Below the pieces are notes generated by a model. That model worked only from the letters and a program-made list of their open reading frames with translations, was not told where the DNA came from and did not search any database. A DNA stretch of 64,000 nt from a virus, in the IMG/VR virus record IMGVR_UViG_3300043436_001797, positions 1-64,000 of that record. One strand, given 5' to 3'. A program made the position numbers and the translations under genes. The stretch's first letter is position 1; each line of letters opens with the position of its first letter. This document shows, one piece after another, positions 32,557-64,000 of this stretch.

Positions 32557-35354
32557 TGGCAACAAGATCGTATGTTTTAGCAACAGGGGCTAATTATTTA
32601 AAAGTATCTGATGATCAGGGGTTGACATGGGAAACCATTACCCCCTCAGGTTATCCGTCAAATCTTGCAAATATTACCTCTATTGCAGCTAGTACTTTTG
32701 ATCCTTACAAAGCTCTTATAACATCATCTAGTGAAGGACTATGGTCTACAACAGATGGTGGTGTTTCTTTTACCCAAGTTCCTGGAACCGGAGGTGTTTC
32801 ACTTTACTCAGTAAATTATCTTGATGGTGTTAGAATTGTAGCAGTTGGTTCAGAAGTATACCGATCTTTTAATGGAGGTACATCATTTACATTAACTGGC
32901 GTAACTCCTGCATCTTTATATGGATCCTCAGGACCAAACATATATTTTAGAAATGTACATTTTGGTTCAAACTTTATAGGGTTTGCCTCTATTTTTGATA
33001 AAATCTATAAGACCTATAACACAGGTCTTACTTGGGAATCCACTAATAGTAATGCAGCTATTGTAGCCGGAAAGTTTGTTGTTGGAATTATACATCTGAA
33101 TGATACTAATGTTGTTATTGCTCTTGTTGAGGATAGCGGTGTGTATGTTTCATTAGATGGGGGTATTAGCTTCTCTCTTTCAACAGCAACACCAGTAATA
33201 GATCTTAATACTAGTTTTATATCAACAGCGGGTCAAAGTGCAGGTACATGGATAATTGATTCTAATCAAGATATTTACTACAGTTCTGGTAGTGGTCTTG
33301 GATATACTTTAGTAGGTAATTATCCTTTTGGCGCTCCTTTAGAACAAGCTGTATTTGGTTTCAGTGGTTCAAATGCTATATTTATTGGTGCTGGTATTAC
33401 TAGCGCATCTACTACTATTCACACAACACAAAATGGTGGTGCAACTTTAAATGAAGAAGCAAATTACACAGGTATTGCAAAAGCATTATCATCCACACTT
33501 GACTATGAGTGTGGTGAATGTCCTGGTAAATCTGATTTTAACCCTCAAACAGGGTTTTGTGAAGACACTGAATTAGCAGGACCTATATGTCCTCCTGGTT
33601 ATATATATGACCCTGTTGCTAATACTTGTACTGGACAAGGAGCTGAAGGATCAATTGATATAGTAGTTTCTAGAGATAATTCTGGATCTGTATTAAGTAA
33701 TAGCAATTATTGTTCTTATACAAATGGTTCAGAATGGGGTCAAATGAACGCCATGCTGAGCGATGTTGTAGTTGGTTTGTCTGCAGGATTATCTGCAGGA
33801 ACTACTCAAATTGCTGTTGGTGACTGGTCTAGTTGCGGAGCTGCTGGTAACCAATCTACTATTGTTCTGGGATTAACAAGTAATGAGACAAGTATTAATA
33901 ACGCTATTTGTGCAGCTCGTAGTTATAATGGAGGTACTTGTCAAACAATAGGTCTTTGCGCTGCCTATAATGAACTTATAAATGGTAGCACAGCAAATCC
34001 GTCAGCTGAAAAGATGTTAATTTTAGTCACTGACGGAAAACCGAGGATATCAGATCCGTGTTCAGTTCTACCATATCCCGCTAGCTCTGGTATAGGTGAT
34101 TTTGCAGACGCAGAAAATACAAGATCTTTAGCTGAGCAAATTAAACAACAAGGTGTAAGATTAGTACTTGTTGTTTTAGGTGAACCTGACGAAAGACAAG
34201 ATGTCTATGACAGTTTGGTACAACCTATTGGGAACACCTATCTTAGTAGTCAGTTGACATATCCTCCCGTACCTAGTTTAGATGACAATGGTAATCTTCT
34301 TTATTTTGAATCTGATTTTACTAATTCCCAAGCACTTGTTCAAAATATTATAAATAGCCTTACTACTGAAGTAACTATACCTGCACCCACTTGTGAAAAT
34401 TGCACTATATATGTTGATCCTGGTGATGGTACAGCATATTTTCAGTCTAATGTGCAGTATGATTTTATCCCATGTTGCTATAAACTAAGTAGCTGTGATA
34501 GTGCTACTGAAATTTATTCTAATACAGATCTTTCTCAGTATGATGGACAAGTTGTAAATATTGCTGGACAGGAAGGATGTTTTTCCATATCTCAACTTAG
34601 TTCAGTATGTATAGAAGATGCTCAGGAGGTTACTGTTACAACAGTTTATGGAAGTTGTGAAACATGTCTTCCATCTTTTAAACTATATAACTGTAAGGAT
34701 ACTAATATATCAATTCAGACATCTAATACACAGTTTGAAGCACTTTTAGGAAAAACTGTAAAGCTTGTTGAATATCCTGGTGACTGCTGGCAAGTAGGAC
34801 CAAATAGCGAAAAAACATTACCACTAGAACCCTTAACACCTAGTGGTGAACCTTTCCAGACATGTATTGAGTGTGATCCAAAAGAGTATGGTTTGACAAA
34901 TTGTGTTAATGGGGTATCTGTTGCGTCCACTGTTGATCTTTCAGCATATGTGGGTAAGGTTATAAAAGCGGATAACTTTCCAGGACTTTGCTTTACAGTA
35001 GAGGAAAATCCTTGTGATTGTTTAAAGATAACTATTAATGGACAGGTTTATAACATTGACAGAGAGCAGAACCTTTTCAATGGAAAACCTTACTTTCAGT
35101 TTATAACAGCAAGTCAGCTATCTATTGTTTTGGCATATGACAGCAATGAAACAAGATGGGAGGTTTATAATCCAGAAACACAAGCTATCTATTTTTATTC
35201 TAACTTGAATATAGAATGCCCGATAACAAGTGTATGGGAAAGAGTAGATCCTAATTTTCCAGGAAATATTACCACTGAAGCGTGTCCATTGCCTATATTG
35301 AATATATCTGTAACAGAAGAATTTGCTAGTTGTGAGCCTTGTGTAAATTGTTAA
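32556..35354 (+). CDS. BNR/sortilin-like propeller fused to vWA domain, Cys-rich tail
   Basis: A 932-residue protein. Residues 1 to about 310 hold five or more BNR-type repeats (SDDQGLTWETI, STTDGGVSFTQV, RSFNGGTSFTLT, YNTGLTWEST, SLDGGISFSL), as in a beta propeller of the sialidase or sortilin type, without obvious sialidase Arg residues. Residues about 368-600 are a von Willebrand A domain with an intact metal site: D374-N-S-G-S and D493 in LVTDGKP. Residues about 620-830 hold three Cys-rich modules with the pattern YxLxNC to DLSxYVGxxV to GxCFxV. This is a plausible receptor-binding adhesin. The combination is unusual for a phage. Confidence 0.8.
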   Translation: MATRSYVLATGANYLKVSDDQGLTWETITPSGYPSNLANITSIAASTFDPYKALITSSSEGLWSTTDGGVSFTQVPGTGGVSLYSVNYLDGVRIVAVGSEVYRSFNGGTSFTLTGVTPASLYGSSGPNIYFRNVHFGSNFIGFASIFDKIYKTYNTGLTWESTNSNAAIVAGKFVVGIIHLNDTNVVIALVEDSGVYVSLDGGISFSLSTATPVIDLNTSFISTAGQSAGTWIIDSNQDIYYSSGSGLGYTLVGNYPFGAPLEQAVFGFSGSNAIFIGAGITSASTTIHTTQNGGATLNEEANYTGIAKALSSTLDYECGECPGKSDFNPQTGFCEDTELAGPICPPGYIYDPVANTCTGQGAEGSIDIVVSRDNSGSVLSNSNYCSYTNGSEWGQMNAMLSDVVVGLSAGLSAGTTQIAVGDWSSCGAAGNQSTIVLGLTSNETSINNAICAARSYNGGTCQTIGLCAAYNELINGSTANPSAEKMLILVTDGKPRISDPCSVLPYPASSGIGDFADAENTRSLAEQIKQQGVRLVLVVLGEPDERQDVYDSLVQPIGNTYLSSQLTYPPVPSLDDNGNLLYFESDFTNSQALVQNIINSLTTEVTIPAPTCENCTIYVDPGDGTAYFQSNVQYDFIPCCYKLSSCDSATEIYSNTDLSQYDGQVVNIAGQEGCFSISQLSSVCIEDAQEVTVTTVYGSCETCLPSFKLYNCKDTNISIQTSNTQFEALLGKTVKLVEYPGDCWQVGPNSEKTLPLEPLTPSGEPFQTCIECDPKEYGLTNCVNGVSVASTVDLSAYVGKVIKADNFPGLCFTVEENPCDCLKITINGQVYNIDREQNLFNGKPYFQFITASQLSIVLAYDSNETRWEVYNPETQAIYFYSNLNIECPITSVWERVDPNFPGNITTEACPLPILNISVTEEFASCEPCVNC

Positions 35355-48839: not shown

Positions 48840-51800
48840 ATGGCAAAGAAACAAGGTAATACTCCAGAATCTGGAATCAGTTCTAACTCAGGATCTTTTA
48901 CCAAAGGTCTTGTAAGAGACTTTGATGAAAACTTTGATCCCGAAAGTTCATGGCCATACGCACGTAACGCTTCAAACAATTCTAAAGAAGGTGATGTTGG
49001 TGTCTTAGGTAATGAACCATCAAACTCTGCATGCGGAGTTGCTCCCTACACAGTTATTGGTAGAATATTTTTATTCAATGCTTACTGGGCAATATTTTCT
49101 ACCGATGATAGCAACTCTGAAATAGGTGTGTATGATGAGTCCCTCTGTCAATATAGAACTGTAGTTAACCAAAAATGTCTAAACTTTAGGAAACTAAATC
49201 TAGTAACAGGGGTAGCTAAAGAAAACTTTGATTGTCAGTGGGCGGTTTATTTTGCTGATGGTAGAAATCCAGACAGATATATAAACATAGGTAACCCCGC
49301 ACTGTGGCCAGATACACCATACCTTGGTAATAACTATTATCAAAATAATGTACTGTGGCCAGGTGTACAGTGGATACAAGACTGTCAAATTATAAACAGT
49401 TGTACAATATGTGAAAATACCAACAGTTTAGATTGTGAAGAAATCAGAATCAATAAACTTGTTAATACCCCTTGTGTTAAAGTTAGCGCTAAAGAAGGTG
49501 GCGGTAACCTAGCTAATGGTTCTTATGTTGCTTTTATAGCATACTTAGAAAATGGTCAGAAGTATGGAGACTATACATCACCCTCTAACGTACAACCTAT
49601 ATTTGATCACGACAATCTTGGTGGTTCAATTACTGTAGAAGTATCTAATCTTGAAAATAAGTCTTTTACTGAGTTTGAACTAGTTATTGCTGCGACAGTA
49701 AATGGGCAAACTGTAGCAAGAAGAATAGGTCAATATGCTTGTTCCGATGGACCTGTATTGGTATATCTTGATAGTATAAACGACTCGTTACCTACGGTAC
49801 CTCTTGAGTTACTTCCTATAAGATCACCATTGTATGAAACATCAGATTCTATTTTTGAAACTGGAAGCTACCTTCTTAAAATAGGTCCTCGTACAACTTT
49901 TGATTTTAACTATCAACCACTGGCAAATCAAATTGAAGCTAAGTGGGCAATTGTAAGATATCCGTCAGATTATTACAAGAGTGTAGGTAGCAACACAGGT
50001 TATATGCGTGATGAGGTATATTCATTTTTTATAAGATGGATTTACGCAACAGGAGAAAAATCTAAGTCATATCATATTCCTGGAAAGATTGGAGATAGTA
50101 AGGATACTACACAATCTATAGGTATATACTCAGCAGAACTAGAATACGGTTTTGAAAAAGAAAATACAGCTACTATAACTAGTACGACTACATATTCTTT
50201 ATCAGATGGTGGTGTTGTAATAGCTGAAGGTACAATGGGTTACTGGCAATCTTCTGAAAAGTATCCAGATAGAAATCCTGAGGTTTGGAATTCTAGTTAT
50301 GATCCTAGAATATCAGGTACAAGTCAAACTACATGGGATCTTTGTAACCAACCTATCCGACATCATAAGATGCCGGAAGATGTTATTTCTAATGATTTAA
50401 AATATACAAGAGCTGTTATTTTAGATTCTGCTGGTAATATTGTTCCATCACCTAAGTACACTGGAGCTACTCACATTCAGATAGTTGGTGTAAAGTTTTC
50501 AAACATTAAACCTCCTGTTTATATAGACGATGATGGAAATACTAAGGTTATTCCTGGTATTGTTGGTTATGAGATTCTTCGTGGATCACGAACAGGAAAC
50601 AAGTCCATTATAGCAAAGGGTATTATAAACAATATGCGGAGCTATACTGATATTGATGATACAGAAGGTCTTTATGCAAACTATCCGTTTAATCCTGTAA
50701 AGGATATAAGTGGAACAATTGATCCTACACTATCAATTACTCCGGTTAATGGTAATGGTAGTAATTACACCCCTGTAACAGAATCACATGTAAAGAAAAA
50801 CTTTTTAACCTTTCATTCTCCGGACACTAGTTTCTATAAACCTTTCTTAGCTGTAAAAGAATTAAAACTTTATACAGAGTTAGGAAATCCTGGTAATGCA
50901 AAAGGAACATTTGAACCAGTACCCGGACATCCCAAGGAAAAACTTTTAAGCAATGTTTCATCTACAACAGCAATGATACTTGGTATAGCTGAAGCAATCT
51001 TTGCAATGAAAGGTGAAGAAGGATGGGAAGGAGAAGAATCAAGATCACTTAATATAGGTCTTGGTGGTACGATGGTTATGCCAACCCCAGGAGGAGTCTT
51101 TGGTGCACCTAGTTTGATGTATCCAACTTTCGGTGTACCTGGTGGTAATGTGTATGAAGGACTTAAACAAGCACAGGTGCTTGGACAAACAGGTCTCAGT
51201 GCATCAGCTCAAGGATTGACAGGTGGTTTAATGTCATTAGGTGGAGCGGGTATGGTGACAGGTAATAATGCTCAGTTATTTTACATGGGCGATAAACTTG
51301 CATCAAATGGGTACGCACTTGCAGGGGGATATATGGGACCTACAAGAAGAAGAATGCACAAAGAAGGTGTTATGTCAGGTCTTCCACTTATAGCAAATAT
51401 TTTTGCGGTTGTTCCTACATTGTATACACTAGCTACAAACGCAGCATCTAAAACAATTGACCTAATATATGCTTTTGTAAAAGCTCGTAGTTATGTCTAT
51501 AGATTTATTTCCCACGGGTTTTTACATAAAGACAATTTACCGCCAGCATCCAGAAGGCATTATATAAATGATGTCGCATATTTAAATGAAGGTTTTAATA
51601 TGTTTGGTGGGTATAAGATCAATAATATTAACAGATTTAAAACTACAGTATTAACTACCGCAAATGATGTGGCGTTACCTAACATTGTAGATAATACAGG
51701 TGTAAGCATTAGCAGAAATGTAAGTTCTAATGTTACAGCTGCTACAATGGATCCATCGCTTACAGGGAAACCGGCTAGTGCTCCTGTAGCAGAACTTATA

Positions 51801-54101
51801 AAAACTATATCTATAACAGCATCTTGTTTTTATGCTGGTTTAAAAATTAGATTTAGAAACCAATACGGACAATTAGATCAGATTAGACAAATACCTTTAC
51901 CATGTCCGCATATTGTTAATAACAATAAACCTATTCCGGATTCTGCTATTGATGCTCCAGTAGGGTCCACTGTTACTATATTTAATGCTAATTACTCAAC
52001 TGATGTTTTATTTGGAGGTGACACATATATAGGCAGATACACAGAAAAGAATACTTTCTTTTATTTCTATGATTGGTTATATGGTCAACCTGATGAAACC
52101 CCATTTAATTATAGGGCTAAGTACTTGGGTTTATATCCTCGTTACTTTGCAGACTTTAGTAGATATGATATAGATGGGTTAATACCCACAATGCTGCAAA
52201 AGTTTAATCAACCTAATACATGGGATACACCCGCTAATCAAGTTAACTTAGAACAGGAATCTACACCCGTAGGTTTACTAGGATTAGTACGTATGGCTTT
52301 TAATAATGTATTACCTAATTTAATTGGTAATGCAGATGATAATAGTTATAGCAGCGGCGATAATAAATTTTCATTTTCTATAAGAAGAGGTTTCATGTAT
52401 CTCTTTAGCTCAGGTGTAAGGGATTTCTTTGTAGAATCTGATATTAACGTAGACCAAAGAGACTGGGGTGAACTTGATGAACAAAAACACTTTGAGGTTC
52501 TTTCTGACCTTAAAACATTGTTTGATACTAGAATTATTAGATTTGGTAACTACTACAAGATTGACCCATCTATTTCAGTATCAAAGCTTTACTACAGTGT
52601 AGTATCTTGGGGTAACATGCAAGATAGAGACTATAATCCTATGGTATCTGCTCTATGTTATAAGTACTTACCTAACAGAGTTATCTACTCGTTACCTACA
52701 GTTCTTGAAGGAAAGAAAGATGGTTGGAGAATATTCTTACCAAACAACTATAGAGACTTTAAGTCTAAGGTTACTGCTATTAGACCTATAGGTAAGAACG
52801 GAGCATTGATGCTCTTTGATAGAGATAGTCCCGTACAGATTCAGGGTACCGAAACTCTTGAGTCTGATATGGGAACTAAGATTACAGTAGGTGATGGTGC
52901 ACTGTTTAATAAACCGTTACAAGCACTTACAAACACAGACCAATCTTATGAGTATGGATCTTGTCAAGATAAGTTTTCAATTCTAAATACACCAGCAGGT
53001 ATCTACTGGGTATCTCAGTCTCTCGGAAAAATATTTTCAATAGGAAGCGGACTAGAAGAGATATCTGCTTCTGGTATGCGTTGGTGGTTTAGTAAGTTTT
53101 TACCTTACAGAATACTAGAGGATTTTCCAAACTTTGAAGCTACAGATAATCCGGTAATTGGTGTAGGTTGTCAAGCTGTTTATGATAACGACTTCTTGAT
53201 GATTTACTTTACTAAGAAGGACTATGAGCTTAGAAAAGATTTACCTGCGGGAATCAGTCTTACATATGTTGGTGGTGTAGATTTTATCTTGAACACAGGT
53301 GGTTCTTCGGGATCTTCTGGAGATAAAAATAATACAAGACCTAATGCTGCTAAAATTAAGTTAGGAGATCCTAATTACTTTAACGATGTATCATGGACAA
53401 TATCATATGACCCTAAGTCAAAAGCTTGGATCTCTTTCCACGATTGGCATCCGACAATGATGATCCCTAGTAACCAGAACTTTATAACTATTAATGATAA
53501 TACTTTCTGGAGACATAATAGTCGCACTGATAGTTTCTGTAACTATTATGGGGTTGATTATCCATTCCAGGTAGAGTATGTGGTAGATACAGGACAGACA
53601 GTAAATACTTTAAAGAGTATAGAATACTTACTTGAGTCATATGTATACGATATAGATGGTATTGATAGATTCCAGCTTTTAGACTTTAACTTTGATGAAC
53701 TTATTGTATATAACTCTGAACAAGTTTCTGGACAACTTAATCTCAATATGGCACCTAAGGATAATCCTTTTGCTAGATTGAATTATCCTGCTGTAACTGG
53801 TGCGGGGATAAATATTATGTACGAGAAAGTAGAGCAGAAGTTTAGAGTAAATCAGTTCTGGGACGTTACTGCAAATAGAGGCGAGTATGATGTAAATATT
53901 CAAAGACCGATTTGGTTAACTGGATGGGATGGATATAAGCGATCTTTGAATCCTGCTAACTTGAATTATGCTAAGTCAGTATTTGAAAGAAAGAAGTTTA
54001 GACATTACTACAACAACGTTCTGTTTACCAGAAAGGTTTCGGGTAATGCTAAAATGCTAATGAAGATATCTAACAACAAAAACTTGCTGTCACCGCGATG
54101 A
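48840..54101 (+). CDS. Giant tail hub/muzzle-like protein
   Basis: A 1753-residue protein without membrane spans except a hydrophobic helix pair at about 835-880 (LPLIANIFAVVPTLYTLATN region). The start (KGLVRDFDENFDPESSWPYARNA) fits proteins that begin the beta-propeller hub of short-tailed phages; from memory crAss-like muzzle proteins open in the same way. A Gly-rich insert lies at about 720-830. The C-terminal 700 residues are mostly beta. It likely closes the tail and is the channel mouth. It overlaps the cargo gene by 4 nt. Confidence 0.65.
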   Translation: MAKKQGNTPESGISSNSGSFTKGLVRDFDENFDPESSWPYARNASNNSKEGDVGVLGNEPSNSACGVAPYTVIGRIFLFNAYWAIFSTDDSNSEIGVYDESLCQYRTVVNQKCLNFRKLNLVTGVAKENFDCQWAVYFADGRNPDRYINIGNPALWPDTPYLGNNYYQNNVLWPGVQWIQDCQIINSCTICENTNSLDCEEIRINKLVNTPCVKVSAKEGGGNLANGSYVAFIAYLENGQKYGDYTSPSNVQPIFDHDNLGGSITVEVSNLENKSFTEFELVIAATVNGQTVARRIGQYACSDGPVLVYLDSINDSLPTVPLELLPIRSPLYETSDSIFETGSYLLKIGPRTTFDFNYQPLANQIEAKWAIVRYPSDYYKSVGSNTGYMRDEVYSFFIRWIYATGEKSKSYHIPGKIGDSKDTTQSIGIYSAELEYGFEKENTATITSTTTYSLSDGGVVIAEGTMGYWQSSEKYPDRNPEVWNSSYDPRISGTSQTTWDLCNQPIRHHKMPEDVISNDLKYTRAVILDSAGNIVPSPKYTGATHIQIVGVKFSNIKPPVYIDDDGNTKVIPGIVGYEILRGSRTGNKSIIAKGIINNMRSYTDIDDTEGLYANYPFNPVKDISGTIDPTLSITPVNGNGSNYTPVTESHVKKNFLTFHSPDTSFYKPFLAVKELKLYTELGNPGNAKGTFEPVPGHPKEKLLSNVSSTTAMILGIAEAIFAMKGEEGWEGEESRSLNIGLGGTMVMPTPGGVFGAPSLMYPTFGVPGGNVYEGLKQAQVLGQTGLSASAQGLTGGLMSLGGAGMVTGNNAQLFYMGDKLASNGYALAGGYMGPTRRRMHKEGVMSGLPLIANIFAVVPTLYTLATNAASKTIDLIYAFVKARSYVYRFISHGFLHKDNLPPASRRHYINDVAYLNEGFNMFGGYKINNINRFKTTVLTTANDVALPNIVDNTGVSISRNVSSNVTAATMDPSLTGKPASAPVAELIKTISITASCFYAGLKIRFRNQYGQLDQIRQIPLPCPHIVNNNKPIPDSAIDAPVGSTVTIFNANYSTDVLFGGDTYIGRYTEKNTFFYFYDWLYGQPDETPFNYRAKYLGLYPRYFADFSRYDIDGLIPTMLQKFNQPNTWDTPANQVNLEQESTPVGLLGLVRMAFNNVLPNLIGNADDNSYSSGDNKFSFSIRRGFMYLFSSGVRDFFVESDINVDQRDWGELDEQKHFEVLSDLKTLFDTRIIRFGNYYKIDPSISVSKLYYSVVSWGNMQDRDYNPMVSALCYKYLPNRVIYSLPTVLEGKKDGWRIFLPNNYRDFKSKVTAIRPIGKNGALMLFDRDSPVQIQGTETLESDMGTKITVGDGALFNKPLQALTNTDQSYEYGSCQDKFSILNTPAGIYWVSQSLGKIFSIGSGLEEISASGMRWWFSKFLPYRILEDFPNFEATDNPVIGVGCQAVYDNDFLMIYFTKKDYELRKDLPAGISLTYVGGVDFILNTGGSSGSSGDKNNTRPNAAKIKLGDPNYFNDVSWTISYDPKSKAWISFHDWHPTMMIPSNQNFITINDNTFWRHNSRTDSFCNYYGVDYPFQVEYVVDTGQTVNTLKSIEYLLESYVYDIDGIDRFQLLDFNFDELIVYNSEQVSGQLNLNMAPKDNPFARLNYPAVTGAGINIMYEKVEQKFRVNQFWDVTANRGEYDVNIQRPIWLTGWDGYKRSLNPANLNYAKSVFERKKFRHYYNNVLFTRKVSGNAKMLMKISNNKNLLSPR

Positions 54102-57100
54102 AAGTTTCTAAGACAGGTTATAAGAAAAACTCTAAGGATAAGAACGAACCATCATTGCTTATCCCCTCTAATAGAATTACTATGAAGGGTGTAGAGTTTC
54201 CCGTGTACGGAATAGATGATACAGGATACTCTCAAATGATGTATCCTGGTTTAGATTACTCGTTTCCAGGTAGTTATGTTTATGAACTTCCTATGGCAAA
54301 AGAAGGTGGATACATACTTCCGGGTAGATATAAAAATCCAGAAGGTAACTGGTTGAATAAATATCAGTCAGATAAAAAATCAGGTCAGGTAAAAAATTAC
54401 TGGACATGGAATCCTAAAGCTACTTCCGAAAGAGATAGTATTCAAAATATTGCCGGCAATATATTAAACTATGAAATTCTAAGAGGTGGTCCAGGGGGTA
54501 GCCCGCTCACTTACTACAGTGATCCTGAGTATATGAATACCTTGATGAATGATATATATCCGCAAGTTAAAAAAATGATGCCTAATGCTACTCCCGTAGA
54601 AATGGGGGAAGCTATGGATCTTATTTTTAATAGTGGTTGGGATAAGAGCAATAAAAAAATATTAGTAGATCCTAGAGCATATGCTATACAAGAATACTAT
54701 AGAGTACATGATAAATCCAAACTAGATAAAGAAGGAAACTGGGCAGGTAGAAAAGCTACCCCCGGTACATTTGATAGTGAGTATGCTAACACTGTTGGTA
54801 AACTTTCTGAAAATGAAAGAAGGATTATGATGAATAAAGGGAGAGACTGGTTTTATCAACATAGAGCTCCTAAAGGATCAACCTGGGATTTAAAAACGCA
54901 AGGTGCTTATCCAGACTATGGAGCTACCTGGTATGGAAGAATATGGAATACTAATGATTACGCTCCATTTAATCCGAATAATCCTAAATTTATTTATCCG
55001 TATAAAACAGGCGGTGAAAAATGGTTAGATAAGTATCAAGGTAAAACTAGCGCTAGTGAGGTAAGTTCTTTAAAAGAAGAATCATATAGAACACCTTGGT
55101 GGAATCCTGAAAATTCATCTGAATGGAATCCAGCATGGACATCAGATCCAATTAGACAGAATGCACAAGCAGAGTTTCCGGGTACATATGTATTACCTAC
55201 TGTAGAGATTACAGATGAAAAACCGCAAAGGTTTAAAGATCAAGAAACTGCTGCCGTAGTTAGACAAGTTCTTCCAGATAGAACTATCTTATCAGCATCA
55301 GATGATCCAGAGAAAACATATGAGGATTTTATAAATAGTTCTCGTAACTATCGCAATGCAAAATTAAATGATACTCTAATAGATATAACTGATAAACCAA
55401 TGGGATGGTTTACTTTTAATACAATCCCAGGAGAGAAATACACAGATATATTAGGAAATAACTATATAGAAGTAAATAGGGGTGGAACAGGTAAACCAGA
55501 AGACTATGCTAAAAACTGGAAAACCAGAATGCAGGATCCTAAAGATACTTTTAGAAATAGTGATTATGCTGAAGACGCTGGAAGTTATTACCATAGTAAA
55601 GATATTCCAGCATTCTATGGTATAGAAAATAATAAGTTTAAAGTTGGAAACCCTGGAGATTTTAAAGATGATACAGTAATTGTTCCAGTAAGAAATAGCA
55701 CAACTCCATATAGTAAAGTCGAAGTTGAAAAAGGACTGTTTAAAGATAATTTATATACATATGATAAAGACGGAAATAAAATATGGAACTTACGGAATAA
55801 ACAAAAGTTTTTAGTACATTCTCCGGTAACAAATAGAACAATCTTTATATCTAAGGACAGTTACGAAAATCAAAATTCCAAAGAAAGTTATGCCACAACA
55901 AAAAAATCACTAGATGATTTTTCAAAAAATAATCCAGATGCTTATATCATATCTCTAGATGAAGGTAGATTTCGTGCCTACATGAATTCACCAGAAGGTT
56001 TAGATGATGAAAGTTTTAAGACCTGGAATGCATTTTCTGGTACAGTACTACATAATTATTTAGAAGGACTCGGTAAGGAAGCAGTAGATCATGGTCCCGG
56101 TACATCGGGTTCTCCTTTATATTCTCCTGTAGGTGATGAAAGATATGGATATAATCTAGGTATTCTAAAACAAAAACATGGAGGATGGCTAGATAAATAT
56201 CAATCTAAGACTACATCTGGTTCTGTTTCTAAATCTGGTCCAAGAATTGAAAACTTACCGCTTCAGAAGGTTGATAACAAACTAGAAATAGCATACGATG
56301 GAAGCACGGTATACCTACGTAAAATAGGTGAAGATAAGTTTACTACACTTAGTCCAGAAAAGTCTAAAGCTTTTATTCAGAAGTATCAAGAGCATATACC
56401 ACCTAGTTATTCTAAGGTTGAAGAACAGAAGAAAAAGCAAGCAGCTTATAATGCAAAGGTAGCTGCTGAAAAGAAAGAGATGGATGAGCTTCTTAAGTAC
56501 ACTCCATTAAAACTTACTAAAGAAGAAAAGGATAGAGTTCTAAAAGAGTCTAAAGATGCGCGAGCTGAACTAGCTGAGAAGAGTTGGTTAGACACAGCAT
56601 GGGATGCTACTAAAAGTGCATATGAATCTTTACCAGATGTTTCAGATTTTACTAACGCGGTTAAAGGTGCATATGAGTCTTTGCCTGATGCAGAAAATGT
56701 AATTAAGTTGATGAATTTATCAAACGAGGCAACAAAACTAGCAGCAGCTTATGCTTGGAATTATAAGATACCTGAAAATGATATACCTGGTTTAAGAAGT
56801 TTCGGTGAGCTTTCACCAAAAGAAATATATCAAAGTTTTGAAAATAGATTTATAGAAAAAAACTTTGGTGAGGATACACCAACAGGTGAGTCAAATATTG
56901 AAGAGCTTAATCTGATGTCAGAAGAAGATGTAACTTCTGGAACTTCAGATATGGAACAGTTAAATAAAAGTAGAGCTAAGTACGGACCACAGCGATTACC
57001 CGCAAGAAGAGATTCTAGAGGTAATATGTTACCATCATATCAACCTATTGGTGGAAATGATTCACTAGCTAGATTTAGCTACACATTTAACAATGATATT

Positions 57101-60100
57101 CTAGGTGCTGATACTTTACCTCCTACTCACTTTGTTACACCTAAAGTAAAAGAACTTACAGGAAATCCATCTAGACCAAGAAAATGGGAGAACGCATTTG
57201 CTGTAGGTGATTTCTTGAGAGATGCTGATATAACTGAAAATCAGTTTTATCACCCAGATAAATATTATGTGGGTACTTCTCTTAGCGCACTTCGTAATAG
57301 TGACCTAGGTATAAAAAGCAATAAACTCATAAGCGCTAGTAATCAACTACTTAATGATCCTGAAAAATACTGGGCGGTGTATAAATGGGATCCTGAAAAT
57401 CCTGCAGCAGCATGGGTTAGGTATATGAAAACTAATGAGATTAAGTCTAAGAAAGATCAGTTAGAAAAACAAGGATGGCATCTTGATATGCCTGTATCAG
57501 GTCAACATAGATTTGATGATGTTGATTGGGAAGGCAAAGGTTCAGACACAGGTTATAAAGCAGATTCAGAATGGGTACCGCTTAAAAAAGGTGCTAAAAA
57601 CATAAAGAGTCAAAAAGACGTAAATCATACTTATATACCACAGGGAACTAAAAAAGGTCAAGATAAAACATCCTATAATTTATTCTCTGGTGGATCTATA
57701 ACTTTTGTATGGACTGATCCTGAGACTAATGAAAAACTTGCGTCAACAGTAGCCGGTTCAGTTTCTGACATGAAACAGTATGGTGAAAAACTTAAAAAAG
57801 ATTATGGATTAAAAGAAGGTGATCTTGATATCATATACCATGATACAGGATCCTACTCCGCTAAACCAGCAGCTAAAAATGGTACATTATACTACGATCA
57901 ATGGAAAGACTTTAACGCATATAACAAAGGCTATTCCGGCGCAGCACTGATAGTACCTACACAAAATTGGTTAGAGAACTGGACACCTAATAAAAAAGAA
58001 GGAGGACAATTAGATAAGTACCAATCTGAGAATACAGGTGCTATAAAAAAAGGATGGCATCAAAAAGTTTATAATGATCCTATTGCATTTGCAAAAGCTA
58101 ATAAAGCTTTTAACGATAGTCTTAATCTTAGCAAAAGAAGTTACGAGCTTCTTAAGGATATAGCTCCTAACAGCTCATATAAAAGTAATATTCCCTATGA
58201 AGATGTACATTGGACAGCTGATGGACCAGGTGGTTATTTTATAGATAATGTTGACTTTGGTAGGCAGTTTTTAGGTTTAAATTACTTAACCGATACTAAT
58301 TTTAGAATACCTGGTACAAAAGAGCAACTTATCTTAGAAGAAGCTTTTTCAAAAAGAATAAAACCAATAGGTTTTAATACAACTGACGTTCCAGTACCTA
58401 TTTATAAACTACCAACTGAAGAACCTGTGTATGAAGAACTTAAAAACTTACCTTATCTAGATGCAAAATTGGAGCGTCCTGATTTTAACTTAGATATAGG
58501 TAAACCACCGGTAAAGTCTCAGGGTATTAGAATTAGACCTATGATGACTGCTGATCAAGCTACTAGTACTGGTCAGTATCAATCCGGTAAGTATATGTGG
58601 GATCCAGAAACAAAATCCTGGAAAGTCAAAATGCTAAGTCCTGAAACTCAACAAGAAAACAGAAAAGAGGTTAGAATAGGGATTAAAAAAAATGGTGGAT
58701 GGCTAGATAAATACCAAGATGGTAAAGAAGTAAATAAACCTGTTAGCGCAACATGGTCGGATGAGTTTGGTACTTACATGCTTCCCGAAGTAACTGTAAA
58801 ACCATCCATTAGTCCTGAAGCAACTCGAGCAATACTGAATAGAGAAGCGGGTATGTCTATTTCGCCTGCTCCGTCTGCGGTTGATAGAAGAGTAGCACAA
58901 ACTCAGTACATGTTATCTAACCCACTTGATGCGCTTGGTCATTACTCTAGATATGGTTATGTTCCGCAAGGAAACCTGGGTAACTATGGTATGAGAGAAA
59001 AATCAAGTCCTGTTGGTCAATTACTAATGGACTTCAATCCATACAACTGGGCAAACGCTGCATACAGAGCTGCTATAAGAGGTGGGGATCCTGATACGTA
59101 TACAACAGTTCCTGGTGCTATTAATATGGGTGCAGATTTAGCTGAAGCACTTCCTGTTATTTCTGAACTAGGTCCTTTGCTTAAAGGTGCTAAATCTGCG
59201 ACAGGTGAAGCAGGTAAATATCTTACAGCAAAAACTCCTTTAAAGTATACATACAGATTAAATCCCGAGGCTAGAGGTAGTGTATTCAAACCCTGGGATA
59301 ACAGCATGGGATACCGTGTGGTTAATCAAGAAGGTTATGATGATGCCGTAAAAAGTTTTCTGGTAAGATCAAATCCAAAAGGAGATAATACATTATTTTC
59401 AAGACCTACAGGTTTTCCTTCTTTTGCTAAAGGAAAACCTAGCAAGAACTTTTTTAAGACGGATAATACACCTCATTATATAATGGAAACAGATATTCCA
59501 CTGTATGCAAGAGGGGAAGCAAATCCAGTTACAGGGATACCGATTAAAAGTAGTCATGGAGCAGCAAGACCTATTGATCCTATAACCGGTGAAACCCTAA
59601 CTTCATTTCCAATAGAGGATCTAAACGCTATATATAGCGCACAACCCCATTGGTTAAAAGGTTATCAGCGTGTTTGGCAATCACCTAAAAATATTCAAGA
59701 ATTAGGTAATTTAACATTAGGAAAAAACATTGCTACATCGGGAGCCTTTAATAGAGGTGTCTATGAGTTGCCAGATTATCCTGGATATTTGTTAAAATAT
59801 GAAGATACGGATTTAGTTAGAAATATGGCTTTGCGTGATATTGATGATCTAAATTTTGCCGATCTTCAAATGAATCTAAACTCTTCAAATGTAGGAAAAG
59901 TAATCAAACACTTTAAAAAACAAACTCATCCTATTGATCCAATGCTTGCAGGTAGAGATATGGAAGGATATCTGCTGCGCAGGATGCAAGGTAAACCACT
60001 AGCTACACTACAATTAGATAGATTAAAAGATATTCCAGAAAGTGCTTTTATTCAGTATGCAAAAGATTATGATAATTTAGTTCAACAGAAACTAGCAATG

Positions 60101-61033
60101 GATAATTACGGGCATAATGTACTTTATGATCCAGAAGATGAAGTGTTTAAATTTATAGATTTATCTCCGGAGGCTAACTCTAATATGAGTGATTTTTGGA
60201 GTGAACATGTGATTGATAATATAAACTCTAAAATGCCTAGAGAAAAACAACTAACAGGTATTAAAGGAGCTATTCTTAACCAAATAGATAATAATGTAAA
60301 CATTAATATTGAAAAAGCTATGAAGGATCTTCCTGAAGATGCTGATTTGGAATATGCTGACAAATTAAGAATTGGGATGGAGTTATTGGGTCAAGCTAAA
60401 AAGAATAGAGTAAAAAGAGAATTAGAAAAAGCAGGTTATAAAAAACTAGGTGGGTGGCTTGATAAATATCAAATAAAAGGTGAAGTAACTCCTCCTGCTA
60501 ATCTCCCTTGGATTAATGGTGCAAGCATACCTCAAAAGCAATCGGTAGAGCAACAAGTTAATGCTTGGTTAGGTGAACCAATGAAAAGAGCTGCAGAGGA
60601 AGCGGAGAGAAGAGCTGAACAAGGGGAAGATGCAGGTGACTCTTTTAGACACTCTAATGCAGGTAGATTAACTCGTGAAGAGCTAGAAAAAAAGTTTCCT
60701 GAACTTATGTTGTATACAGGTATTCCACAAGTTGCATCATTCTTAGGAGCTACAGCTTTAGGTATTGGTCATGAGGTAGTAGCACCTAATAGATCTCCGG
60801 ATTATTCTTGGTGGGATACAGCTAGAGAAGCAGGAGAAGACATTATCAACAATACCATAGGAGCAACGGGTTTATTTTCAGAAGAAGATCTTTATAACAT
60901 GTATCTGAACAACCAATTACCTGATGGATATGGTAAAGGAAATATGTACTTCAAACAGAAAAAAGGAGGAGAAATGTCCCCAAGTATGGGATATTTTAAC
61001 TATATTGGTGGATATAGGGGTATGTTGCCTTAA
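54098..61033 (+). CDS. Giant modular cargo protein with six GGWLDKYQ motifs
   Basis: A 2311-residue soluble protein divided by six copies of a motif close to GGWLDKYQ, with the Q at residues 90, 314, 702, 1309, 1540 and 2125. The modules between them have different folds. Residues about 105-300 look lysozyme-like (AMDLIFNSGWD, then ERRIMMNKGRDWF), weakly. Residues about 1735-1860 have a YRVV to SSHGA to EDLNAIY pattern that could be ADP-ribosyltransferase-like, very tentative. Residues 1881-2060 have protein-kinase-like key residues: SGAFNRGVY at 1881-1889, K1900, D2002xxxxN2007 and D2021LS. Residues about 2180-2255 carry SFRH (H2185), GHE (H2225, E2226) and D2248xxNN. It is probably packed in the virion and ejected. 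No signal peptide. Confidence 0.7.
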   Translation: MKVSKTGYKKNSKDKNEPSLLIPSNRITMKGVEFPVYGIDDTGYSQMMYPGLDYSFPGSYVYELPMAKEGGYILPGRYKNPEGNWLNKYQSDKKSGQVKNYWTWNPKATSERDSIQNIAGNILNYEILRGGPGGSPLTYYSDPEYMNTLMNDIYPQVKKMMPNATPVEMGEAMDLIFNSGWDKSNKKILVDPRAYAIQEYYRVHDKSKLDKEGNWAGRKATPGTFDSEYANTVGKLSENERRIMMNKGRDWFYQHRAPKGSTWDLKTQGAYPDYGATWYGRIWNTNDYAPFNPNNPKFIYPYKTGGEKWLDKYQGKTSASEVSSLKEESYRTPWWNPENSSEWNPAWTSDPIRQNAQAEFPGTYVLPTVEITDEKPQRFKDQETAAVVRQVLPDRTILSASDDPEKTYEDFINSSRNYRNAKLNDTLIDITDKPMGWFTFNTIPGEKYTDILGNNYIEVNRGGTGKPEDYAKNWKTRMQDPKDTFRNSDYAEDAGSYYHSKDIPAFYGIENNKFKVGNPGDFKDDTVIVPVRNSTTPYSKVEVEKGLFKDNLYTYDKDGNKIWNLRNKQKFLVHSPVTNRTIFISKDSYENQNSKESYATTKKSLDDFSKNNPDAYIISLDEGRFRAYMNSPEGLDDESFKTWNAFSGTVLHNYLEGLGKEAVDHGPGTSGSPLYSPVGDERYGYNLGILKQKHGGWLDKYQSKTTSGSVSKSGPRIENLPLQKVDNKLEIAYDGSTVYLRKIGEDKFTTLSPEKSKAFIQKYQEHIPPSYSKVEEQKKKQAAYNAKVAAEKKEMDELLKYTPLKLTKEEKDRVLKESKDARAELAEKSWLDTAWDATKSAYESLPDVSDFTNAVKGAYESLPDAENVIKLMNLSNEATKLAAAYAWNYKIPENDIPGLRSFGELSPKEIYQSFENRFIEKNFGEDTPTGESNIEELNLMSEEDVTSGTSDMEQLNKSRAKYGPQRLPARRDSRGNMLPSYQPIGGNDSLARFSYTFNNDILGADTLPPTHFVTPKVKELTGNPSRPRKWENAFAVGDFLRDADITENQFYHPDKYYVGTSLSALRNSDLGIKSNKLISASNQLLNDPEKYWAVYKWDPENPAAAWVRYMKTNEIKSKKDQLEKQGWHLDMPVSGQHRFDDVDWEGKGSDTGYKADSEWVPLKKGAKNIKSQKDVNHTYIPQGTKKGQDKTSYNLFSGGSITFVWTDPETNEKLASTVAGSVSDMKQYGEKLKKDYGLKEGDLDIIYHDTGSYSAKPAAKNGTLYYDQWKDFNAYNKGYSGAALIVPTQNWLENWTPNKKEGGQLDKYQSENTGAIKKGWHQKVYNDPIAFAKANKAFNDSLNLSKRSYELLKDIAPNSSYKSNIPYEDVHWTADGPGGYFIDNVDFGRQFLGLNYLTDTNFRIPGTKEQLILEEAFSKRIKPIGFNTTDVPVPIYKLPTEEPVYEELKNLPYLDAKLERPDFNLDIGKPPVKSQGIRIRPMMTADQATSTGQYQSGKYMWDPETKSWKVKMLSPETQQENRKEVRIGIKKNGGWLDKYQDGKEVNKPVSATWSDEFGTYMLPEVTVKPSISPEATRAILNREAGMSISPAPSAVDRRVAQTQYMLSNPLDALGHYSRYGYVPQGNLGNYGMREKSSPVGQLLMDFNPYNWANAAYRAAIRGGDPDTYTTVPGAINMGADLAEALPVISELGPLLKGAKSATGEAGKYLTAKTPLKYTYRLNPEARGSVFKPWDNSMGYRVVNQEGYDDAVKSFLVRSNPKGDNTLFSRPTGFPSFAKGKPSKNFFKTDNTPHYIMETDIPLYARGEANPVTGIPIKSSHGAARPIDPITGETLTSFPIEDLNAIYSAQPHWLKGYQRVWQSPKNIQELGNLTLGKNIATSGAFNRGVYELPDYPGYLLKYEDTDLVRNMALRDIDDLNFADLQMNLNSSNVGKVIKHFKKQTHPIDPMLAGRDMEGYLLRRMQGKPLATLQLDRLKDIPESAFIQYAKDYDNLVQQKLAMDNYGHNVLYDPEDEVFKFIDLSPEANSNMSDFWSEHVIDNINSKMPREKQLTGIKGAILNQIDNNVNINIEKAMKDLPEDADLEYADKLRIGMELLGQAKKNRVKRELEKAGYKKLGGWLDKYQIKGEVTPPANLPWINGASIPQKQSVEQQVNAWLGEPMKRAAEEAERRAEQGEDAGDSFRHSNAGRLTREELEKKFPELMLYTGIPQVASFLGATALGIGHEVVAPNRSPDYSWWDTAREAGEDIINNTIGATGLFSEEDLYNMYLNNQLPDGYGKGNMYFKQKKGGEMSPSMGYFNYIGGYRGMLP

Positions 61034-61037
61034 TGAT

Positions 61038-61045
61038 TATCTTTG
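61038..61045 (+). promoter_or_regulatory. Possible promoter, TATCTTTG box
   Basis: TATCTTTG matches TAnnTTTG, 19 nt before the ATG at 61065, in a 31-bp spacer. The short distance and single site make this less sure than the others. Confidence 0.4.
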
Positions 61046-61064
61046 ACTTACAAATAATTCTAGT

Positions 61065-62714
61065 ATGAAAAAAGAATTTTTAAAAATGGCTGGTGTAAAA
61101 ACAGAGCAAGAGTTCTATCGTAAGTATCCTAATGAAAAGGATTTCTTTGAAGCTCATCCAGATGCTTTGAAAAAACTAGCTCGTGGTGGTGAGGCATATC
61201 CACAAACTGCTACTATGGATAACTTCTTTAGTTACGGGGTACCAGTTCCACCTACTTACTATGCACATGGTGGTGCATTCCCTATGGCACAATCAGAGGA
61301 ACAGTTCTTCTCACCTTTCTATGGAAACGTACCTAACCCATACAACAAAGCTATGGGTGGAAGCTCTGAAGCGTATCCTCAGTCAATGTCTTTCCCATAT
61401 GGAAACACTGGCAGAAGCACACACTTTATGATGGAAGACGGTGGGGATATGCCAGAAGAACAAACTCTACCAAAGATGGGAGTCAATGGTAAACTCCTAG
61501 AGTTTGTAGGTACTGTTAAAAATACAGCTGCTAATAAACTAAACAGCAATCTTGCTAAATACGGTAAGGTAAAGAACCCAGAGCAGTATGAGTTTGAGAA
61601 AGCTAAATGGGGAGGTAATCTAAAAGAATATCAGACTAAGGAAACTGCAGGTGGTATTGACGATGTTGAATTGGTTGCTAAAAAAGGTCCAATTTTTGAA
61701 CCGCTGAATCTTCCTAAAGTTGATACTAATTCTGATGTGCCAGGAACCGCTAATTACTATGGAGAATATTCTCAAGGATATGGATCACCCTCTTTTACAA
61801 ATTGTTTTCCTGGAAATCCTAACTGCAATCAAGTATACGGTCAACTTCCTCCAGAATACTATAATGATATAGACTACCTGCGCGGTAGAAGAAGACCGTA
61901 TAGGGACTTTGATATCCGCGGTAAAGGTATGTTTGGTAAATATAGATCGACTGGTTGGTTGAAAGATGAGTATGGTTTAGAAGGACTGAGACAAATGGGG
62001 ATGACAGACATGCAGGAAAGTAATCCTAAATGGTGGCAGTTGTTAAAGCGTCCTACTAAAACATACATTTTTGACAGACAATATCAGCAACAGGGTCCTA
62101 ACGGGGAGTACAAATACAATCCAGTAAAAATTTACGATAAAGATGGAATGCCTGATCATAAAGCTCAAAACGCTTATGAGAATATGCTTAAACCAGGAAA
62201 TGAAAAGGATATGGGATTCTTTGCTAGGATGTTTCATAAATCAGGTAATGTAACTGGTCAAGGAAGAGATGTAATGCCAGGAACACCTTCAGATCCTAAT
62301 GCTGAGATGTCTCCTCAAATGACAAGTGCATTTGATTATAAAGGATATAATCCAAATTACTCTGAAGCAAGAAATCAGATTTTCCAAAATAAAAGACAAA
62401 AAATAGGAAAGCAGCTAGATAAACTTTATCAAAAAAGAGCCGATATGGAGGATATGGGTCTTACTATTTCTGATAAAGATGAGCGTAAAATGAAAAGACT
62501 AGGTAATAGATTTAACCGCAAAGGAACTGGTAAAGGAGTAAACTATAGTTTTGATACTTATGAAGAACCTACACCTGCTCCTGGATTTGCTTATGGTGGA
62601 TATACAACATATGCAAAAGGTGGCTCATACAACGCAGGAGATGTCGTAGATATGACTCCTGAAGAGTTGCAGAGATTTATTGAAATGGGCGGTCAAGTAG
62701 AATTCTTAGACTAA
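61065..62714 (+). CDS. Cargo-type protein with repeated xGG motifs
   Basis: A 549-residue protein. The N-terminal EFYRKYPNEKDFFEAHPDAL is a helical module, then GG sites follow at short spacing: LARGGEAYPQ, YAHGGAFPMA, KAMGGSSEAYPQ, EDGGDMP, and near the end FAYGGYTTYAKGGSYN and EMGGQVEF. KWGGNLKEYQ (Q190) is a variant of the KYQ motif of the giant protein. The middle is polar and Pro/Tyr rich, likely flexible. It probably belongs to the same ejected set. No enzyme domain is recognised. Confidence 0.65.
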   Translation: MKKEFLKMAGVKTEQEFYRKYPNEKDFFEAHPDALKKLARGGEAYPQTATMDNFFSYGVPVPPTYYAHGGAFPMAQSEEQFFSPFYGNVPNPYNKAMGGSSEAYPQSMSFPYGNTGRSTHFMMEDGGDMPEEQTLPKMGVNGKLLEFVGTVKNTAANKLNSNLAKYGKVKNPEQYEFEKAKWGGNLKEYQTKETAGGIDDVELVAKKGPIFEPLNLPKVDTNSDVPGTANYYGEYSQGYGSPSFTNCFPGNPNCNQVYGQLPPEYYNDIDYLRGRRRPYRDFDIRGKGMFGKYRSTGWLKDEYGLEGLRQMGMTDMQESNPKWWQLLKRPTKTYIFDRQYQQQGPNGEYKYNPVKIYDKDGMPDHKAQNAYENMLKPGNEKDMGFFARMFHKSGNVTGQGRDVMPGTPSDPNAEMSPQMTSAFDYKGYNPNYSEARNQIFQNKRQKIGKQLDKLYQKRADMEDMGLTISDKDERKMKRLGNRFNRKGTGKGVNYSFDTYEEPTPAPGFAYGGYTTYAKGGSYNAGDVVDMTPEELQRFIEMGGQVEFLD

Positions 62715-62719
62715 TTACA

Positions 62720-64000
62720 ATGAAAGTTAGAATCACAAAAGCTCCTAAACTTAGAAAGTATCAAACGGATGTTACACCTGGTCAAGTTATGCCTGCTGCA
62801 ACACCGTCAGACTATAACAACTATAGAGATGCCAGCTGGTTTCAACCATGGGAAGGAGTAGATATGAGTCAGTTTCCCAATGGCATAGATCCAATGGGAG
62901 GAGAGTTTACTACGGGTAAACAGAGATCTCTATATTATACCATAAGAGATGGGAAACAAGAACTCTACCCACCACATCAGAAAGTTGCTCATGCAATGGA
63001 TCACAGGGGAATCTCAGGTATACGTTTTTATCAACGTCCTGGTGATGATGGAGCTGGCAGCAATGGTGGTGATGCAGGATATGGTGACGATGCTGAAATG
63101 GGAGATTCTTATATGGCAGATCCTTATGCAGAAAAGAATGCGTATAGGGCTAAAATGCGGGATGAGTACAATCAATTAAGTACAGAACCGCAAGAAGGTT
63201 TTGAGACATGGTTGCATAATAAGGGAGATTATCTAAATTATTCGGGGTTATCCGGTGATTCAAATCAAACAAGTTTAGAGCAGAAAGATCAAGGTCTTAC
63301 TGATTATAGAACTGGTATGCCGGATTTTAAGTCTGGAAATGGTAGTGGTGCTGGTAGTGGTTTTGGTAATTCTGGTGGCACCGGTTCTACTGGTGGTGCT
63401 GGTTCTGGTCCTGCTGGTCCTACTGGTACTGGTTCTAGTAGCGGTGGTGGTGGTGATTCAGGATCTGTTAATACTATTGGTGGAGGAGGAGGGGGAGGTG
63501 ATTTGAAATCTGCTGGTATGCCGCAAGATCAAGGTTTTCACGGAGTTGTAAAAGAAAAAGGTCGGTCAAAGCTCGGTAAGTTCATTAGAGGTTTAGGACC
63601 TCAAAAGGGAATGGATGCTTACATAAACAGACAAAATGCTAAAGACTTTGTTACGGGATTTGCTGAGTATAAAGGTAAGGTTGATATGGATAAGGAAGCT
63701 GTCAAAGGTTTCCATATGTCGCAACCTATTGCCGCATCTACCCAGGGTACCTTTGATCCCAACAGCATGAACAACTTTACTCCTGGTATGCTAAATACAG
63801 TACCGTCTACAGGAGATTTTGCAATGGCACCTAATATGCCTATGGGTGCATATGGTGGTCAGTTTATGGCATATGGTGGTAGAGTGTTTAATCAGGTAGC
63901 ACCAAATGCTTTACCCGATAGAACATCTGAACCTAGAATAGCAGTATCAAACACACTGCAACCAGTACCTAGAGAGCTTGCTAATATCGAAGCAGAGAAA
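62720..64000 (+). CDS. Cargo-type protein with N-terminal KYQ, cut by window end
   Basis: Open in frame from the ATG at 62720 for 427 codons to the window edge, so the gene is incomplete here. It starts MKVRITKAPKLRKYQTDV, again the KYQ phrase. A Gly/Ser/Thr-rich linker lies at about residues 211-260 (DNA about 63350-63500), with a collagen-like GPAGPTGTG. Near the end are AYGGQFMAYGGRVF sites like those in the previous protein. No enzyme domain is seen so far. Confidence 0.7.
   Translation, partial: MKVRITKAPKLRKYQTDVTPGQVMPAATPSDYNNYRDASWFQPWEGVDMSQFPNGIDPMGGEFTTGKQRSLYYTIRDGKQELYPPHQKVAHAMDHRGISGIRFYQRPGDDGAGSNGGDAGYGDDAEMGDSYMADPYAEKNAYRAKMRDEYNQLSTEPQEGFETWLHNKGDYLNYSGLSGDSNQTSLEQKDQGLTDYRTGMPDFKSGNGSGAGSGFGNSGGTGSTGGAGSGPAGPTGTGSSSGGGGDSGSVNTIGGGGGGGDLKSAGMPQDQGFHGVVKEKGRSKLGKFIRGLGPQKGMDAYINRQNAKDFVTGFAEYKGKVDMDKEAVKGFHMSQPIAASTQGTFDPNSMNNFTPGMLNTVPSTGDFAMAPNMPMGAYGGQFMAYGGRVFNQVAPNALPDRTSEPRIAVSNTLQPVPRELANIEAEK

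What the first reader, a model, noticed from the sequence alone, without database searches (positions are those of the whole stretch)
54098..62760. GGWLDKYQ-punctuated multi-module protein: a possible virion-borne effector array
Six copies of the motif divide 2311 residues into modules of about 186-607 residues that look like unrelated domains (lysozyme-like, kinase-like, FRH/HE/NN). The same phrase starts or dots nearby genes (KWGGNLKEYQ, LRKYQ, and KKYQ in the tiny cassette). This reads like a delivery tag or processing site for a modular set of proteins injected with the genome, comparable in concept to polymorphic toxins but in a phage virion. I know no description of this system.
Basis: partly seen in the sequence, partly recalled or inferred. 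Interest (0 to 1): 0.88.

Follow-up and report, generated by a model that had tools for sequence, protein, structure and literature searches.

The report
Swappable enzyme cargo in crAss-like phages
In an uncultured group of crAss-like viruses of bacteria, the gene behind the tail-tip gene encodes a protein probably carried inside the virus particle, built from interchangeable enzyme-like pieces separated and capped by one short tag (GG-WLDKYQ), so that relatives have swapped whole pieces exactly at the tag.

Summary
In detail: six L-[DN]-K-Y-Q phrases in 2311 residues (0.004 expected), dividing it into segments of 84-607 residues. The gene lies directly behind the muzzle gene of a Crassvirales phage, the slot that holds cargo protein C1 in PhicrAss001. 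In 92 non-redundant relatives this slot gene varies from 147 to 2473 residues. 80 of 92 end in ...GG-WL[DN]KY-[NKQ], 21 begin with M..WLDKY..GG, and 117 further copies are internal. The strict motif W[LIM][DSN][KE][YF] occurs in no other gene of these regions (about 546,000 residues). Between the window and a close relative, DNA homology starts at the TGG codon of one copy and stops five codons after another, so whole modules have been exchanged. Modules elsewhere in the family include ADP-ribosyltransferases, HExxH metallopeptidases (45 of 92 proteins) and peptidoglycan hydrolases. The one constant 49-residue domain, and some zincin modules, have homologues in Cellulophaga phage phi4:1 proteins detected in virions by mass spectrometry. 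I read it as a motif-punctuated, virion-borne polyvalent cargo protein. The motif is most likely a docking or packaging tag; a processing site is not excluded. The extension to neighbouring genes fails, and the window's own 'lysozyme' call is unconfirmed. New variant of a known kind.

The parts
48840..54101 (+). muzzle protein gene (tail-tip gatekeeper), 1753 aa; marks the phage as Crassvirales
   Evidence: Pfam crAss_MUZ PF25731 E=1.7e-27; tblastn to phi4:1, csAssE-Sib, Lbo-JY46, Flavobacterium phages
54098..61033 (+). slot gene: motif-punctuated modular cargo protein, 2311 aa
54161..54307 (+). 'IPS' domain (res 22-70), the only constant domain of the family
   Evidence: HMM hit once per protein in about 87 slot proteins, positions from res 22 to res 1858; homologues in phi4:1 gp040 (1.1e-9) and Lbo-JY46 (1.2e-16); predicted all-beta, pLDDT about 85 in L168
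54344..54367 (+). joint motif copy 1, GNWLNKYQ
54350..55021 (+). module 1 (res 85-308), enzyme-like but unassigned; 59% identical to L095 res 485-677
   Evidence: no PDB or Pfam match
55016..55039 (+). joint motif copy 2, EKWLDKYQ
55022..56185 (+). module 2 (res 309-696), no relative found
56180..56203 (+). joint motif copy 3, GGWLDKYQ; DNA homology to relative G003 begins at its TGG codon
56186..58006 (+). module 3 (res 697-1303), shared with G003 (about 78%) in a different context
58001..58024 (+). joint motif copy 4, GGQLDKYQ
58007..58699 (+). module 3b (res 1304-1534), 96% identical in G003
58694..58717 (+). joint motif copy 5, GGWLDKYQ; homology to G003 ends five codons after it
58700..60454 (+). 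module 4 (res 1535-2119); the whole 1694-2116 block recurs in L093 and ends at the motif there too
59177..59677 (+). mobile domain (res 1694-1860), ART-like YR..G pattern, recurs in about 20 other slot proteins
   Evidence: fold not confirmed
59678..60454 (+). kinase-like region (res 1861-2119): K of YLLKYE, MDN.G.NV.YD, FKFIDLSP conserved with L093
   Evidence: sequence pattern only
60449..60472 (+). joint motif copy 6, GGWLDKYQ
60455..61030 (+). module 5 (res 2120-2311); homologue in L100 res 378-518; last 27 aa are shared with G003
61065..62714 (+). conserved next gene (MKKEFLKMAGVKTEQEFYRKYP...), the downstream border of the slot in relatives

Best explanation
The gene encodes a virion-borne, modular effector ('polyvalent') cargo protein of an uncultured Crassvirales clade. 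SHOWN: one slot behind the muzzle gene holds a protein of 147-2473 aa made of a constant 49-aa domain, short GG-WL[DSN]KY-GG joints at the ends and between modules, and exchangeable modules; homology breakpoints are strongly enriched at the joints. LIKELY: the protein is packed in the capsid or tail with the other cargo and ejected with the genome, and the modules act on the cell wall or on host proteins early in infection. INFERRED: the WLDKY phrase is a short linear docking/packaging tag in flexible linker that tethers each module (and both ends) to a virion component or packing partner, so any module placed between two tags is packed and threaded out. Recombination in joints then keeps frame and tag while renewing the weapon set.
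For: Slot and synteny. Set selected without the motif: 73 of 80 slot ORFs carry it, 72 at the very C-terminus; in the other 7 the ORF next to the anchor is an inserted GIY-YIG-type ORF. 92 NR proteins: 21 N-terminal, 80 C-terminal, 117 internal copies, GG on the module side(s). Exclusivity: 199 copies in 101,197 slot residues; 5 in 545,748 other residues, and those 5 lie in ORFs that are themselves slot genes (L141 checked). Base-resolved swap window/G003. Breakpoints at >=85% identity: 36 of 142 within 10 aa of a motif, 4.0 expected, maximum 11 in 200 draws. Effector domains: ART-PolyVal 1.1e-10 and 7e-14, ADPrib_exo_Tox 1.7e-9 ending 17 aa before a motif, SLT 2e-17, PG_binding_1, internal virion protein with endolysin domain. 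HExxH 67 in 105k slot residues vs 12 in 542k others. Virion: phi4:1 gp040 (IPS domain, 1.1e-9) and gp041 (zincin homologous to modules in 8 slot proteins, to 1.9e-33) are MS/MS-detected virion proteins next to the muzzle. Motif and linkers pLDDT <50, IPS about 85. 105 distinct 24-mers among 141 copies.
Against: No virion proteomics for any motif-bearing phage; no cultured member. No homology to PhicrAss001 cargo gp45/gp46. For the window's own modules no enzyme assignment reached significance (structure model poor). Most breakpoints are not at WLxKY: at >=80% identity 55 of 238 are, and 86 of the other 183 are at other GG phrases. No binding partner of the tag was found, so 'tag' is inference.
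Confidence: 0.57

Rival explanations
1. Processing site: GG-WLDKY is cut by a phage or host peptidase (possibly the zincin modules) after injection or during maturation, releasing separate effectors from one polyprotein, as proposed for MPTase domains in polyvalent proteins.
For: Joints lie between modules in predicted disorder; HExxH modules occur in 45 of 92 proteins; the polyvalent-protein paper proposes MPTase self-processing; T4 Alt is processed at both ends.
Against: 80 of 92 proteins end with the motif, so cutting after it releases 0-2 residues. The motif persists in proteins without any zincin, including the window and 7 of 8 proteins under 400 aa. Association of >=3 copies with HExxH is weak (p=0.058).
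Confidence: 0.2
2. Recombination joint: the phrase is mainly a short stretch of shared DNA that lets modules recombine in frame, with no role as a protein tag.
For: Breakpoints cluster at the motif.
Against: The terminal copies (80 C-terminal, 21 N-terminal) are not at module junctions. DNA of the motif varies at synonymous sites much like the rest of the gene: 105 distinct 24-mers in 141 copies.
Confidence: 0.1
3. Passive spacer: a flexible GG linker with an aromatic knob that keeps modules apart or helps threading, without a specific partner.
For: GG flanks and predicted disorder; other GG joints (AMGGSLPGA, DGGRCWPG) also mark breakpoints.
Against: W, L, K, Y are 95-100% conserved in N-terminal and C-terminal copies while linkers normally drift; the motif is confined to one gene family.
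Confidence: 0.1
4. Tail-exposed rather than injected: the slot protein decorates the tail tip and the modules act outside the cell (cell-wall or capsule degradation).
For: Some modules are peptidoglycan-directed; the gene is next to the muzzle.
Against: ADP-ribosyltransferases have no obvious use outside the cell; the post-muzzle slot in PhicrAss001 encodes internal cargo (PMC10172136).
Confidence: 0.08

Closest known systems
Polyvalent proteins (Iyer et al. 2017, PMC5512222)
   Same: Large phage polypeptides linking unrelated enzymatic domains (zincin peptidases, ARTs, kinases, lysozymes), predicted to be packed in the capsid and injected with DNA; ART-PolyVal itself is present in the family; recombining cassettes were suggested for one locus.
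   Different: Crassvirales slot and constant IPS domain; modules separated and capped by one short motif; base-resolved swapping at it. Searching that paper for crAss, linker and short motif gave no hits.
PhicrAss001 cargo proteins C1/C2 (gp45, gp46), Bayfield et al. 2023 (PMC10172136)
   Same: Same genomic slot, directly behind the muzzle gene; C1 lies in capsid and tail barrel and is thought to be ejected first.
   Different: No detectable homology of the IPS domain or motif; hypervariable length; effector domains. The paper notes that the epsilon group lacks a detectable gp45 homologue.
Cellulophaga phage phi4:1 gp040/gp041
   Same: gp040 has the IPS domain; gp041 carries two HExxH sites in the same slot, one in a region homologous to slot modules; both detected in virions by MS/MS (record annotation).
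   Different: No WLxKY motif; IPS domain and enzymes are on separate genes.
T4 capsid targeting sequence (Alt, IPI-IPIII; PMC9026906)
   Same: A short peptide that sends different proteins, including an ADP-ribosyltransferase, into the head for injection.
   Different: N-terminal propeptide removed by gp21; one per protein; no sequence kinship tested or claimed.
Bacterial polymorphic toxins
   Same: Constant delivery part plus exchangeable effector modules.
   Different: Modules vary throughout, not only at the C-terminus; the next gene is a conserved gene in the relatives found, not a variable immunity gene.

Membership tests
Crassvirales | Crassvirus major capsid protein | tested here: met
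   PF23898 Crass_capsid E=5.6e-31 in window 24123-25751
Crassvirales | muzzle protein and ring-protein synteny | tested here: met
   PF25731 1.7e-27; genes at 47249 and 47923 match csAssE proteins annotated as ring proteins
Polyvalent proteins | several domains of unrelated biochemical activity in one polypeptide | tested here: met
   In the family: L093 ART-PolyVal plus PG_binding_1 (weak), L101 weak M91 plus weak Phage_lysozyme2. For the window protein itself no domain passed a threshold.
Polyvalent proteins | zincin-like peptidase as commonest domain | tested here: met
   HExxH in 45 of 92 slot proteins, 29-fold denser than in other genes; absent from the window protein
Polyvalent proteins | packed in the virion and injected with DNA | not testable with these tools
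   Indirect: homology to MS/MS-detected phi4:1 virion proteins
PhicrAss001 C1 cargo (gp45) family | position directly after the muzzle gene | tested here: met
PhicrAss001 C1 cargo (gp45) family | sequence homology to gp45 or gp46 | tested here: not met
   IPS HMM has no hit in PhicrAss001 ORFs
Polymorphic toxins | variable C-terminal toxin followed by a variable immunity gene | tested here: not met
   downstream gene is conserved; variable modules at any position
T4-type capsid targeting sequence | N-terminal propeptide needed for packing and removed by prohead protease | not testable with these tools
   needs virion proteomics; here the motif is more often C-terminal or internal than N-terminal

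The most novel reading that the evidence does not exclude
WLDKY is a dedicated, portable virion-loading and ejection tag: a receptor in the crassvirus portal, barrel or muzzle binds each copy, so one hypervariable gene works as a plug-in cassette for whatever effector modules recombine between tags, and the tag would load foreign proteins as well.
Probability: 0.4. Interest if true: 0.88.

Novelty: new variant of a known kind. Interest (0 to 1): 0.74.

Why it matters
It gives a defined slot, a sequence signature (GG-WL[DSN]KY) and module borders with which the injected effector repertoire of an uncultured crass-like clade can be read off metagenomes, and many unannotated domains can be cut out precisely for assay. 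If the motif is a loading tag, it would explain how crassviruses keep changing cargo in one delivery channel and would be a second kind of short virion-targeting peptide besides the T4 one.

Tried and rejected
tblastn of the 2311-aa protein against phages and a single-sequence scan of viral contigs found nothing, because modules are not conserved as a whole. Single-linkage clustering of segments merged everything and was replaced by breakpoint statistics. GGWLVKYQGWLIPIAGG hits are an unrelated, tape-measure-like family and were discarded. Motif-selected loci are biased, so the set was redone with the downstream gene as bait. A conserved DNA site was rejected on codon usage. AlphaFold of the ART/kinase block was too poor (pLDDT 54) to name a fold; PDB Foldseek gave nothing significant, PARP ART domains appearing only at E>2. 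No bacterial genome contig carries a relative, so no host could be inferred. A two-ORF slot in L141 proved to be a frame break, not two proteins. PDB profile searches with A5 and A6 gave nothing significant.
Full report
What is in the window. The window is part of an 81,817-base virus record. Major capsid protein (PF23898, 5.6e-31) and muzzle protein (PF25731, 1.7e-27) place it in Crassvirales; muzzle and terminase are only about 25-28% identical to known relatives. The 2311-aa ORF (54098-61033) overlaps the end of the muzzle gene. It is followed by a 549-aa gene, an 1136-aa gene and further large genes to the end of the record. In PhicrAss001 the genes after the muzzle encode the cargo proteins gp45, gp46, gp47, gp49 and gp50 (PMC10172136).

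The phrases in neighbouring genes exist but lack the W-L-x-K-Y core.

The motif defines a gene family. A scan of viral contigs for GGWLxKYQ gave 82 stretches, about 50 of them crass-like. In each of those where the slot could be read, the motif lies in the gene between the muzzle (with one extra gene of about 288 aa between them in some lineages) and a gene starting MKAQILKIAGVKSEKEFYKKFP.... To remove selection bias I used that downstream gene as bait: 306 relatives were found and 80 loci read. 73 of 80 slot ORFs carry W-L-x-K-[YF]; in the other seven the ORF next to the anchor is an inserted GIY-YIG-type ORF; 72 have the motif at their very C-terminus. Over 92 non-redundant slot proteins (147-2473 aa) there are 21 N-terminal, 117 internal and 80 C-terminal copies, with GG on the side facing a module in most copies: M..WLDKY..GG, GGWLDKYQ.GG, GGWLDKYN-end. 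The strict motif occurs 199 times in 101,197 slot residues and 5 times in 545,748 residues of all other long ORFs of the same regions; the five are in ORFs that my sorting had missed as slot genes: the frame-broken L141 gene (checked) and, by position and motif layout, L131 and L194. Codons in the motif vary much like the rest of the gene: 105 distinct 24-mers among 141 copies. Selection is therefore on the peptide.

Constant and variable parts. One 49-residue domain (here called IPS, from IPSxxITMxGVxYPVLGISDTGD) is found once per protein in about 87 slot proteins, at residue 22 in some and near residue 1810 in others. A model of the short member L168 shows it as an all-beta domain (pLDDT about 85), while both motif copies and the linkers are predicted disordered. 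Everything else varies. Between the window and relative G003 (blastn pieces mostly 79-94% identical) the slot proteins share only some blocks: DNA identity jumps from 28% to 95% at the TGG codon of one motif copy, falls to chance five codons after another, and is perfect again from the KQKKGG phrase near the end. Over all pairs, breakpoints of alignments with at least 85% identity lie within 10 aa of a motif in 36 of 142 cases against 4.0 expected. At 80% identity 55 of 238 lie at WLxKY, and 86 of the remaining 183 lie at other GG phrases against 23 expected. WLDKY is thus the main but not the only joint.

What the modules are. In the family: SLT transglycosylase (2e-17), ART-PolyVal (1.1e-10, 7e-14), ADP-ribosyltransferase exoenzyme (1.7e-9), PG_binding_1, endolysin PHROGs including an internal virion protein with endolysin domain, and weak SprT-like, M91 and M48 matches. 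HExxH occurs 67 times in 105,303 slot residues and 12 times in 541,642 others; 45 of 92 slot proteins have it. The L092 exoenzyme domain ends 17 residues before a motif, and the L093 ART-PolyVal domain ends about 37 residues before one. For the window's own protein no library match is significant. Its module 4 holds a mobile domain (res 1694-1860) seen in about 20 other slot proteins, with an ART-like YR..G pattern, then a region with kinase-like residues (YLLKYE, MDNYGHNVLYD, FKFIDLSP) conserved in L093. Both readings rest on sequence pattern; the structure model was too poor to confirm them. 'Lysozyme-like' for module 1 is unconfirmed.

Virion carriage. Cellulophaga phage phi4:1 gp040 (IPS domain, 1.1e-9; Foldseek match to a phi4:1 structural protein of the same length, probability 1.00, E=1.1e-3) and gp041 (two HExxH sites; one region homologous to modules in eight slot proteins, down to 1.9e-33) lie directly behind that phage's muzzle gene and are annotated as detected in virions by MS/MS. 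This is the best evidence that slot proteins are virion proteins; it is indirect.

Mechanism. I think the protein is cargo, packed and ejected like PhicrAss001 C1, that delivers several enzymes at once, and that WLDKY is a docking or packaging tag. For: it caps the protein ends, sits on flexible GG linkers, is nearly invariant at W, L, K and Y in the terminal copies, and is confined to this one cargo gene. Against processing: cutting after a C-terminal copy would release at most two residues, and the motif persists in proteins with no zincin. Against a pure recombination joint: terminal copies are not junctions. PhicrAss001 has six copies of an unassigned 14-residue cargo helix bound inside the muzzle (PMC10172136); whether WLDKY binds an equivalent site is untested.

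Comparison. The idea of one injected phage polypeptide with many unrelated enzymes is known as polyvalent proteins (PMC5512222), which share ARTs, zincins, kinases and lysozymes; searching that paper for crAss, linker and short motif gave nothing. The T4 capsid targeting sequence is the nearest functional analogue (PMC9026906). No paper in the held library contains WLDKYQ, and no phage in the GenBank collection was found to carry the system; Lbo-JY46 has the IPS domain only. I rate it a new variant of a known kind.

Noticed in passing
L153, L155, L156, L157, L165, L194, L197: A 207-aa ORF beginning MKTGIYTITN (GIY-YIG-type start, homing-endonuclease-like by eye) sits between the slot gene and the conserved next gene in 7 of 80 loci.
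   Followed up: partly
window 62720-64000 (gene runs to 66130 of the record): The 1136-aa gene carries two phrases like a crassvirus cargo N-terminus, MKVRITKAPKLRKYQ at its start and MRVRIKSLPRYQ inside; relatives start M..VRVKSLPKAQ.G. It may be a fusion, and KAQ.G a second conserved cargo phrase.
   Followed up: partly
L094-L096, L107, L120, L128, L129, L160, L164, L172 (slot protein N-termini): Zinc-ribbon-like N-terminus CTCGHSWNKSDSSKKDMYVCHMCG precedes the first joint in several lineages.
   Followed up: no
L015, L016, L029, L046, L058 and others: GGWLVKYQGWLIPIAGG in proteins of about 650 aa, resembling a tape measure by eye; unrelated to the finding.
   Followed up: no
window 32556-35354: 932-aa protein with Sortilin-Vps10 (1.5e-8) and VWA (1e-6) matches in the structural gene block.
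   Followed up: no
L005 (PP438436.1): Leptolyngbya phage Lbo-JY46, deposited with a cyanobacterial host, is crass-like in muzzle, IPS domain and gene order; all other listed hosts of the muzzle relatives are Bacteroidota, so the host label deserves a check.
   Followed up: no
window 59630-59660 and L206, L120, L094: The mobile ART-like domain ends in W-L-[KR]-G-Y-[QK] (PHWLKGYQ, KDWLRGYK), close to the joint motif itself.
   Followed up: no
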